A stretch of 20,936 bases of DNA from a virus: the IMG/VR virus record IMGVR_UViG_3300032334_000163, positions 1 through 20,936 of that record. The stretch is one strand, 5' to 3'. The notes below the pieces were generated by a model, which saw only the letters and a list, made by a program, of their open reading frames with translations, was not told where the DNA came from and did no database searches. Positions 19,500 to 20,936 of the stretch are shown piece after piece. Position numbers and translations under genes: made by a program. Position 1 is the first letter of the stretch. Each line of letters starts with the position of its first letter.

Positions 19500-19507
19500 T
19501 ATAAATA
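19500..19507 (+). promoter_or_regulatory. T4 late promoter, exact TATAAATA
   Basis: Perfect match, five bases after the ligase-fold gene's stop codon. With the T4 spacing the transcript begins at A19513, the first base of the conserved hairpin described at 19513-19525. Confidence 0.8.
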
Positions 19508-19512
19508 TTAAC

Positions 19513-19525
19513 ATGCGGTAACGCA
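19513..19525 (+). promoter_or_regulatory. 5'-terminal hairpin / AUG-CGG-UAA minimal ORF
   Basis: Starting at the predicted +1: ATG CGG TAA, which is also a hairpin with stem TGCG (19514-19517) / CGCA (19522-19525) and loop GTAA, a GNRA-type tetraloop. The same 13 bases occur before the next gene at 20061-20073. AAGGAG and the ATG follow 7 and 20 bases later. Confidence 0.65.
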
Positions 19526-19545
19526 AATAATTAAGGAGAATTAAA

Positions 19546-19998
19546 ATGGCAATCGGAGTTACAAGAGTAAGTGGTGATTCACAATTAGTGAACAATATCG
19601 GTGACGGTTACACCCTAAACGCAAATGCACAAATTATCAACACAGGTATTGCAAGCCCAATCAAGGCTTACAAAATTACTACACTAGGTGTTACTGCTAA
19701 CTTAGCAGCAGAACTAAAAGGTCCAAGTACAGCAGGAAAAGACCCAGCGGTACACACTTTGTTAAAAACTATTGCAGCCAATGCTACAGTTTTAGCATAT
19801 CAAGTTGATGCATCAGGTTCAACAGCACAACTAAGCGTTATTGTTGAGCGTAGCAGCTGGGGCAGCGATGCAGACCTACAAGCCACTATTCGTACACTAA
19901 GTCACGATGGTACAGCTGGTGCTAACATTGGTGCATACGGTAACGTATTCCCAGCTTTAGCGGCAGTTACATCAACAGGCGGTATCAAAATAGCTTAA
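19546..19998 (+). CDS. Small late structural-type protein, paralogue A (150 aa)
   Basis: AAGGAG at 19533-19538 gives a clear start. The N-terminus MAIGVTRVSGDSQL matches the next gene's MPIGVTRSAG. The protein then has INTGIASPIKAYKI, a helix (DPAVHTLLKTIAANATVLAYQVD) and TAQLSVIVERSSWGSDADLQATIRTL. It ends in a beta-rich tail with TSTGGIKIA. I recall similar short proteins in T4-like cyanophages, thought to be virion or capsid-associated; no enzyme motif. It has its own exact late promoter and terminator, so it is probably made in large amounts late in infection, fitting a decoration or other abundant structural protein. No signal peptide or membrane segment. Confidence 0.7.
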   Translation: MAIGVTRVSGDSQLVNNIGDGYTLNANAQIINTGIASPIKAYKITTLGVTANLAAELKGPSTAGKDPAVHTLLKTIAANATVLAYQVDASGSTAQLSVIVERSSWGSDADLQATIRTLSHDGTAGANIGAYGNVFPALAAVTSTGGIKIA

Positions 19999-20013
19999 TT
20001 AAACTAAGCGTTT

Positions 20014-20039
20014 AAAAAGCAGCTTCGGCTGCTTTTTTT
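20014..20039 (+). terminator. Strong intrinsic terminator (TTCG loop)
   Basis: Perfect 10-bp stem AAAAAGCAGC (20014-20023) / GCTGCTTTTT (20028-20037) with a TTCG tetraloop, followed by further T. It ends the transcript of the 150-aa gene, before the promoter at 20048. Confidence 0.92.
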
Positions 20040-20047
20040 ATGACTGC

Positions 20048-20055
20048 GATAAATA
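20048..20055 (+). promoter_or_regulatory. T4-type late promoter (GATAAATA)
   Basis: One mismatch from TATAAATA. Using the T4 spacing, +1 falls on A20061, again the first base of ATGCGGTAACGCA, exactly as in the previous gene. Confidence 0.7.
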
Positions 20056-20060
20056 TATAC

Positions 20061-20073
20061 ATGCGGTAACGCA
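20061..20073 (+). promoter_or_regulatory. Second copy of the 5'-terminal hairpin
   Basis: Stem TGCG (20062-20065) / CGCA (20070-20073), loop GTAA; the ATG-CGG-TAA reading is also repeated. The run ACATGCGGTAACGCAAAT is shared with the upstream copy, and AGGAG follows at 20082-20086. Confidence 0.65.
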
Positions 20074-20093
20074 AATATTTTAGGAGAAATAAA

Positions 20094-20456
20094 ATGCCAA
20101 TCGGAGTTACAAGAAGCGCAGGTTATGCGTATACAGGTACAACTGGTGTGTTAAATGGTGTACAATACACCAACGCTGGTCAAAGTATTAAATTATATGT
20201 TGTTGCATCGTTAAACTTATCGTCTGAAGATGACGCAGCAGACGAAGCATTCGAAGCAATCATTCAACTTTTTCCACCTGTGTTAGCATATTATTCTCAT
20301 GCTACTACTGGTGCAATTAGCTTGATCTGCGACGGTGTTAACGCACCAGCAGCAAGTGCATTACAAACAGCACTACAAGCAATTGGAGCCAAGAAAGGCG
20401 CAGTTAACCTATCAAGTGCAACTGTTACTGATGGTACAAGTTTTGTAATTAGCTAA
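20094..20456 (+). CDS. Small late structural-type protein, paralogue B (120 aa)
   Basis: ATG with AGGAG 7 bases upstream. It shares the N-terminus [MP]IGVTR and overall plan with the 150-aa gene. After the first 14 residues come a beta segment (SIKLYVVASLNLSS), an acidic helix (EDDAADEAFEAIIQLFPPVLAYYSHA) and a C-terminal helix-strand part (AASALQTALQAIGAKKGAVNLSS...FVIS). The helix and LAYY stretch align with TIAANATVLAYQV of paralogue A. The two genes, with near-identical leaders and separate terminators, look like a duplication that diverged strongly in protein sequence while the regulatory leader was kept. A minor virion or decoration protein is the best guess. Confidence 0.7.
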   Translation: MPIGVTRSAGYAYTGTTGVLNGVQYTNAGQSIKLYVVASLNLSSEDDAADEAFEAIIQLFPPVLAYYSHATTGAISLICDGVNAPAASALQTALQAIGAKKGAVNLSSATVTDGTSFVIS

Positions 20457-20477: not shown

Positions 20478-20505
20478 CAAAGGCAGACTTGTTCTGCCTT
20501 TTTTG
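20478..20505 (+). terminator. Intrinsic terminator after paralogue B
   Basis: Stem AAAGGCAGA (20479-20487) / TCTGCCTTT (20493-20501), 5-base loop, then TTT. It lies 22 bases after the stop codon. Confidence 0.88.
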
Positions 20506-20510
20506 TTGTC

Positions 20511-20518
20511 TATAAATA
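20511..20518 (+). promoter_or_regulatory. T4 late promoter, exact TATAAATA
   Basis: The T4 spacing puts +1 at A20524, which is the A of the next gene's ATG, so its mRNA would have no leader. Confidence 0.75.
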
Positions 20519-20523
20519 TCTAT

Positions 20524-20936
20524 ATGAAATTCTACACTGGTGTTACATTAGTTGATATTACTGCCACTGGAGTCACAAGACATCGAGCCGAGCAAGAGCT
20601 TGAACGTGATCAACAACGTAATTGGGAAACAGTATTACAATGCATTGGACTCAGAGCGCAACCACAATTAATTGATGGTCCATTCTGTGATGAATACACA
20701 GTCGACGAGACCAGCTTCTTTGGGGAAATGTACTACGGTAAGCAAAAGGTCTGGCTTTTTAGTTTTGGGGTAGAGTTTGATGATGTGTTTTTATTGGATG
20801 GAGATCCGGTGGGGCAATTAGATAAGGACTTTGCACAAGTGCCGATTATTTGTGGACTTGAAGAATCAGCTAGATTCATACTCCCTATTTTTTACCCATA
20901 TGGGGCAATCAAAAACATATACTTTATAGATGGCAG
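20524..20936 (+). CDS. Conserved late phage protein, 3' end cut by window edge
   Basis: Open from ATG 20524 to the right edge (about 137 codons). It reads MKFYTGVTLVDITATGVTRH, then AEQELERDQQRNWETVLQCIGLRAQPQLIDGP, KVWLFSFGVEFDDVF, GDPVGQLDKDFAQVPIICGLEES and FYPYGAIKNIYFIDG. The RNW/QxxGLRxQP block and DPVGxLxxDFxxVP are features I recall from a conserved family in T4-like cyanophages whose function is unknown to me. No ribosome binding site precedes the ATG; the exact late promoter 6 bases upstream predicts a leaderless mRNA. No transmembrane segment is visible. A virion-assembly role is possible because of its late promoter, but nothing in the sequence proves it. Confidence 0.75.
   Translation, partial: MKFYTGVTLVDITATGVTRHRAEQELERDQQRNWETVLQCIGLRAQPQLIDGPFCDEYTVDETSFFGEMYYGKQKVWLFSFGVEFDDVFLLDGDPVGQLDKDFAQVPIICGLEESARFILPIFYPYGAIKNIYFIDG

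What the first reader, a model, noticed from the sequence alone, without database searches (positions are those of the whole stretch)
19500..20094. Two late transcripts predicted to start with the same AUGCGGUAACGCA hairpin
Upstream of two paralogous genes, T4-style late promoters place +1 on the first base of an identical 13-base element: a 4-bp stem closed by a GNRA-type loop. The encoded proteins have diverged greatly, while this leader did not. The element is also AUG-CGG-UAA, a start-Arg-stop mini-ORF. It could stabilise the mRNA 5' end, set ribosome loading or bind a regulator.
Basis: seen in the sequence. Interest (0 to 1): 0.7.

Follow-up and report, generated by a model that had tools for sequence, protein, structure and literature searches.

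The report
Conserved hairpin starting phage late mRNAs
In a large group of uncultured T4-like freshwater phages, the messages of one family of small late genes are predicted to begin, at their very first bases, with a tiny RNA hairpin whose sequence drifts but whose base pairing is kept, which most likely protects the front end of the message from decay.

Summary
Confirmed. ATGCGGTAACGCA lies at 19513-19525 and 20061-20073, each exactly five bases after a T4-type late promoter box and 33 bases before the start codon of two remotely paralogous genes. The published T4 spacing (box at -13 to -6) puts +1 on the A. I collected homologues by protein, not by the element: all 135 distinct leaders fold into a hairpin with 0, 1 or 2 unpaired 5' bases, and 130 reach -3 kcal/mol (7.6% of shuffles do). 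The stem is rebuilt with compensating changes in many relatives (UGCG/CGCA, UGCA/UGCA, GUGC/GCAC, UACGC/GCGUA, AUG-bulge-AGUUC/GAACU-CAU), so base pairing is conserved, not sequence. Other late leaders of these phages, and T4's own, lack it. Most likely it is a 5'-terminal mRNA-stabilising hairpin (ompA/papA type) built into the late transcript's first base. The AUG-CGG-UAA mini-ORF is secondary: the +1 AUG occurs in 124 of 135 leaders and is lost in several lineages, although an in-frame stop follows in 120 of 124. Sequence-specific regulator binding is disfavoured. No Rfam family reached its threshold. Start sites and function have not been measured; no cultured phage carries these genes.

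The parts
19500..19507 (+). T4-type late promoter box TATAAATA (predicted -13 to -6)
   Evidence: sequence; spacing rule from PMC1524935
19513..19525 (+). 5'-terminal hairpin element, copy 1: A + UGCG/CGCA stem + GUAA loop; predicted +1 = 19513
   Evidence: conserved in relatives
19534..19538 (+). Shine-Dalgarno AGGAG of gene 1, predicted unpaired
19546..19998 (+). late gene 1, 150 aa (P1 family), function unknown, predicted ferredoxin-like core
20014..20039 (+). intrinsic-terminator-like hairpin (AAAAAGCAGC-UUCG-GCUGCUUUUU) between gene 1 and the next promoter
   Evidence: read from sequence; not listed by the simple terminator scan
20048..20055 (+). late promoter box GATAAATA (predicted -13 to -6)
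20061..20073 (+). 5'-terminal hairpin element, copy 2; predicted +1 = 20061
   Evidence: conserved in relatives
20082..20086 (+). Shine-Dalgarno AGGAG of gene 2
20094..20456 (+). late gene 2, 120 aa (P2 family), remote paralogue of gene 1
20479..20504 (+). intrinsic terminator of gene 2

Best explanation
The element is an RNA hairpin built into the first transcribed bases of gp55-type late transcripts of one gene family in T4-like phages. The late promoter starts the mRNA on the A, and bases 1-3 onward fold at once into a short hairpin (mostly 4-5 bp, up to 9) leaving 0-2 unpaired 5' bases. An unstructured AU-rich linker and an open SD follow. Most likely mechanism: the hairpin masks the 5' end from RppH-type pyrophosphohydrolase and from 5'-end-dependent RNase E (or the host's equivalents), lengthening the life of these short late mRNAs, each of which also ends in a terminator hairpin. 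Shown by computation: position, conserved pairing, specificity for these genes. Inferred: start site, stabilisation, the enzymes involved, high expression.
For: All 135 distinct leaders of protein-retrieved homologues fold with 0 (14), 1 (111) or 2 (10) unpaired 5' nt, and 130/135 reach -3 kcal/mol. Only 7.6% of dinucleotide shuffles do so, and 13/179 other late leaders in the same loci. Mean MFE of the first 22 nt is -4.6 against -1.4 for shuffles and -1.2 for other late leaders. Compensatory stems: 35 non-AUGCG leaders average -4.9, but chimeras joining one leader's 5' half to another's 3' half average -1.8. The AUG..CAU subclass pairs 100% in register against 24-57% when slid, with 2 of 5 pairs changed on both sides. 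Loop length (3-8) and sequence vary. The hairpin does not cover the SD. In a 137-kb relative it is before these two genes and not before the other late leaders listed, including a probable tail sheath gene. E. coli RppH and RNase E need single-stranded 5' ends, a 5' hairpin stabilises bla mRNA, and B. subtilis RppH needs at least two unpaired 5' nt (PMC3997798).
Against: No 5' end, RNA half-life or expression has been measured. The host is unknown. A 5' end hairpin has no effect on some mRNAs (rpsO, T7-made lacZ; PMC3997798). The AGC-GNRA-GCA variants fold at only about -1.6 kcal/mol, weak for a protective cap. Probable highly expressed late genes such as the tail sheath lack it, so it is not a general late-mRNA stabiliser. 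One P2 lineage (MAGITRSSGYEF; L190, L207, L208, L242, L251) lacks it.
Confidence: 0.6

Rival explanations
1. The 5'-terminal AUG is the functional part: 70S ribosomes bind it as on a leaderless mRNA, translate a two- or few-codon ORF (AUG-CGG-UAA) and reload at the SD-led start, or use the 5' end as a standby site; the hairpin tunes this.
For: +1 AUG in 124/135 leaders. The AUG frame is closed by a stop before the main start in 120/124, against 69 and 75 for the other frames. Where codons 2-3 hold no stop, 51/56 have one later against 33 expected from linker shuffles. The next gene is predicted leaderless with AUG on +1, so 5'-terminal AUGs are probably used in these cells. E. coli 5'-uAUGs bind 70S ribosomes and can raise downstream expression (PMC4965119).
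Against: AUG is lost in 11/135 leaders of several lineages (AAGCGC, AGCG, AUACGC, AUAAAA) while the hairpin stays. U2 and G3, and in one subclass all of AUG, are paired, which should hinder 5' AUG use. Position of the stop and the second codon vary. Closed frames could simply avoid interference with the main gene. Leaders are phylogenetically related, so the counts are not independent.
Confidence: 0.17
2. The hairpin is a binding site for a phage or host RNA-binding regulator, possibly the late gene product itself (its predicted core resembles RRM/S6-type ferredoxin folds).
For: The element is specific to one gene family. The P1 model resembles RRM, S6 and ACT domains.
Against: Stem and loop sequence and loop length vary widely, and the hairpin does not overlap the SD. 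The fold match has Z below 7 on a very common fold and shows no function; the N-terminal 35 residues of the model are low-confidence.
Confidence: 0.1
3. The conservation is at the DNA level: an initially transcribed sequence or operator for promoter escape, or hitch-hiking of a promoter-leader-N-terminus cassette between genes.
For: Spacing to the promoter box is fixed at N5. Leader plus first codons (M[AP]IGVT[RK]) are shared between paralogues and with other small genes such as MAIGVTKVHGNTKSFGAAG.
Against: Compensatory pair changes and variable spacing of the two arms are not expected of a DNA operator. Shared ancestry alone does not explain kept pairing.
Confidence: 0.07

Closest known systems
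5'-terminal stabilising stem-loops of E. coli ompA/papA mRNA and synthetic 5' hairpins (Emory, Bouvet and Belasco 1992, as reviewed in PMC3997798)
   Same: Stem-loop at or within a few bases of the mRNA 5' end, upstream of an open SD; sequence is free, pairing counts.
   Different: Here it is placed by a phage late promoter on base 1, is only about 10-23 nt long, usually begins with AUG, and is a conserved property of one phage gene family.
T4 gene 32 mRNA 5' leader (Gorski 1985; cited in PMC8948821)
   Same: T4-group phage 5' leader with a hairpin reported to confer mRNA stability.
   Different: Gene 32 is a ssDNA-binding-protein gene, not of this family; the cited hairpin is of CUUCGG type. 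T4 late leaders themselves have no comparable +1 hairpin.
Rfam freshwater-2 RNA (RF02980)
   Same: Occurs in the same phage (G001, 52.4 bits) starting 1 base after a predicted late +1, first hairpin at the 5' end, SD downstream.
   Different: Two to three hairpins, different gene. The window element does not pass its threshold (21.8 against 49.9) and the second hairpin is missing.
E. coli 5'-uAUG mRNAs (PMC4965119)
   Same: AUG at the mRNA 5' end followed by a normal SD-led gene.
   Different: No hairpin requirement described in the passages read; here the AUG is partly or wholly base-paired and dispensable.

Membership tests
T4-type (gp55) late promoter | TATAAATA-like box with +1 six bases after it | tested here: met
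   TATAAATA and GATAAATA with N5 before the A; all 209 protein-retrieved records have TAAATA upstream
T4-type (gp55) late promoter | late, gp55/gp45-dependent initiation at that base | not testable with these tools
   needs 5' end mapping
5'-terminal mRNA-stabilising stem-loop | hairpin with few or no unpaired 5' bases | tested here: met
   135/135 leaders with 0-2 unpaired bases, counted from the predicted +1
5'-terminal mRNA-stabilising stem-loop | pairing, not sequence, conserved | tested here: met
5'-terminal mRNA-stabilising stem-loop | longer mRNA half-life when present | not testable with these tools
   experiment needed
Rfam freshwater-2 (RF02980) | covariance model score above 49.9 bits | tested here: not met
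   21.8 bits, second hairpin deleted
5'-uAUG / leaderless-type initiation | AUG at the 5' end | tested here: inconclusive
   124/135 leaders; absent from 11
5'-uAUG / leaderless-type initiation | 70S binding or translation from it | not testable with these tools
   toeprint or ribosome profiling needed

The most novel reading that the evidence does not exclude
Late mRNAs of this gene family carry a composite 5' cap: a hairpin that hides the 5' end together with a 5'-terminal AUG start-stop ORF that is itself engaged by ribosomes, a dedicated initiation device of T4-like phages whose neighbouring gene is translated leaderless from the same kind of +1 AUG.
Probability: 0.2. Interest if true: 0.75.

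Novelty: new variant of a known kind. Interest (0 to 1): 0.58.

Why it matters
It would be a conserved, promoter-anchored 5' RNA structure in a widespread group of uncultured T4-like phages, not matched by Rfam. It gives a compact natural system for asking how a 5'-terminal hairpin, a 5'-terminal AUG and a Shine-Dalgarno site share control of one message, and how lytic phages protect chosen late mRNAs after host takeover. The hairpins are short and come in dozens of natural variants, so the question is directly testable in reporters.

Tried and rejected
Homologues in cultured phages by tblastn with four family proteins: none. Homologues in 84,980 bacterial and archaeal genomes: none, so no host assigned. 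Pfam/PHROGs gave no family for P1 and a sub-threshold DUF7252 hint for P2. Rfam gathering-level search of 15 relatives: none. Reverse-strand PsrR1, STnc130 and similar weak hits in the window are below their thresholds and judged chance. General late leader of T4: rejected, T4 leaders are mostly unstructured at +1. General late leader of these phages: rejected. MAFFT alignment of the unbulged class misplaced the 3' arm, so pair statistics for it rest on chimeras and shuffles. Protein fold searches: no solved relative by sequence, only common ferredoxin-like matches under Z 7; the best predicted matches in BFVD were uncharacterised phage proteins.

Full report
What is there. The window ends with two small late genes, each a self-contained unit: late promoter box, five bases, ATGCGGTAACGCA, AU-rich linker, AGGAG, start codon. 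A terminator-like hairpin stands between gene 1 and the second promoter (read from sequence at 20014-20039), and a terminator follows gene 2. The element occurs exactly twice in the window and folds as one unpaired A, a 4-bp stem and a GUAA loop. Published T4 spacing puts +1 on that A (PMC1524935). In the first 120 nt of each predicted message the stem persists and the SD is open.

The two genes. Sequences alone do not connect them, but their family profiles do (96.8%, E 2.9e-10). AlphaFold2 gives P1 a confident C-terminal alpha-beta core (mean pLDDT 78, first ~35 residues poor) with common ferredoxin-like matches. Function is unknown.

Relatives. An exact scan of 2.9 million viral contigs for box-N5-element found 44 stretches, nearly all before homologues of these genes. 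To avoid choosing leaders by the element, I gathered homologues by protein in further scans and read their leaders. Some seed proteins for two of those scans came from contigs first found by pattern, a mild bias; the homologues themselves were found by protein. All 209 protein-retrieved records have TAAATA upstream, with the hairpin starting after N5. Four leaders that looked different contain overlapping boxes (TAAATAAATA) and fall in line with the first box.

Structure is conserved, sequence is not. The 135 distinct leaders all fold with 0, 1 or 2 unpaired 5' bases, and 130 reach -3 kcal/mol. Shuffles do so in 7.6% of cases and other late leaders in 13 of 179; several of those 13 are the same element before other small genes. 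Stems of at least 4 bp start at +2 in 78% of leaders and in 42% or fewer at any other offset tested. Stem classes include UGCG/CGCA, UGCA-GAGA-UGCA, UGCAU/AUGCA, GUGC-GCGA-GCAC, UACGC-GAAA-GCGUA, AGCGC-GAAA-GCGUU, and a bulged class AUG-u-AGUUC/GAACU-CAU and AUG-a-GGC/GCC-CAU. Exchanging halves between classes destroys folding (-4.9 to -1.8 kcal/mol). In the bulged class the five outer pairs are 100% formed in register against 24-57% when slid, with changes on both sides in two pairs. Loops are 3-8 nt; 42 of 54 four-base loops are GNRA.

The mini-ORF. AUG opens 124 of 135 leaders. The AUG frame is closed before the main start in 120 of 124, and the excess of stops holds where the loop does not supply one (51 of 56 against 33 expected; other frames 25 and 33 against 35). 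So the AUG is probably visible to ribosomes, or its frame is kept shut to avoid interference. But AUG is absent from several lineages that keep the hairpin, so it is not the core of the element. The leaders are related by descent, so these counts are not independent trials.

Specificity. In 137-kb and 260-kb relatives the element is only before family members. In the 137-kb contig, the other late-type leaders listed, including a probable tail sheath gene, lack a comparable hairpin; the clearest exceptions with a strong 5' structure are a heat-shock-like gene and the freshwater-2 leader. T4 late leaders lack it. One P2 lineage lacks it. Related cassettes occur before a few other small genes.

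Mechanism. RppH and RNase E prefer single-stranded 5' ends, and appending a 5' hairpin stabilised bla mRNA (PMC3997798). A hairpin starting at base 1-3, with free sequence and an open SD, is what that model predicts and is not what a sequence-specific operator or SD-masking switch predicts. I put 0.6 on the stabiliser, 0.17 on the 5' AUG device, 0.1 on a bound regulator and 0.07 on DNA-level causes. Start site, host, half-life and expression are all unmeasured.

Known families. The window matches no Rfam family at its threshold, nor do 15 relatives. One relative's genome holds a freshwater-2 RNA at the start of another late leader, suggesting that structured 5' ends of late messages are a wider habit in this phage group; the weaker freshwater-2 matches in three other contigs could not be placed at a promoter by my simple script.

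Noticed in passing
window 20511-20934: The next gene (MKFYTGVTLVDITATG...) has its ATG exactly on the predicted +1 of TATAAATA and no SD: a predicted leaderless late mRNA. In relatives the ATG is at offset 0 in 86, +3 in 29 and a few others near; 42 homologues had no box-start pair found.
   Followed up: partly
L432 13744-13810 (-), G001 133744-133810: Rfam freshwater-2 RNA (52.4 bits) lies one base after the predicted late +1 of another small gene (MARGLKISHERSDG...), linking that orphan RNA to T4-like late leaders.
   Followed up: partly
L173, L306, L163, L301, L212, L247: The same late box-hairpin leader, sometimes with the MAIGVTKVHG N-terminus, precedes other small genes, as if promoter, leader and first codons move as a cassette.
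   Followed up: no
G001 around 6354 (-): A heat-shock-like gene (MTQFQINTLDLPQ...) has a strong predicted 5' structure (-9.4 kcal/mol) right after a late-type box; could be chance or a thermosensor.
   Followed up: no
L025 1792-1816 (+): One exact box-N5-element copy precedes an unrelated gene (MLDNIIGVEEAGEILGLSPGTVKNYC...); may be chance.
   Followed up: no
L190, L207, L208, L242, L251: A P2 lineage (MAGITRSSGYEF) has lost the hairpin and has its SD almost at the predicted +1, while gene 1 of the same phages keeps the hairpin.
   Followed up: no
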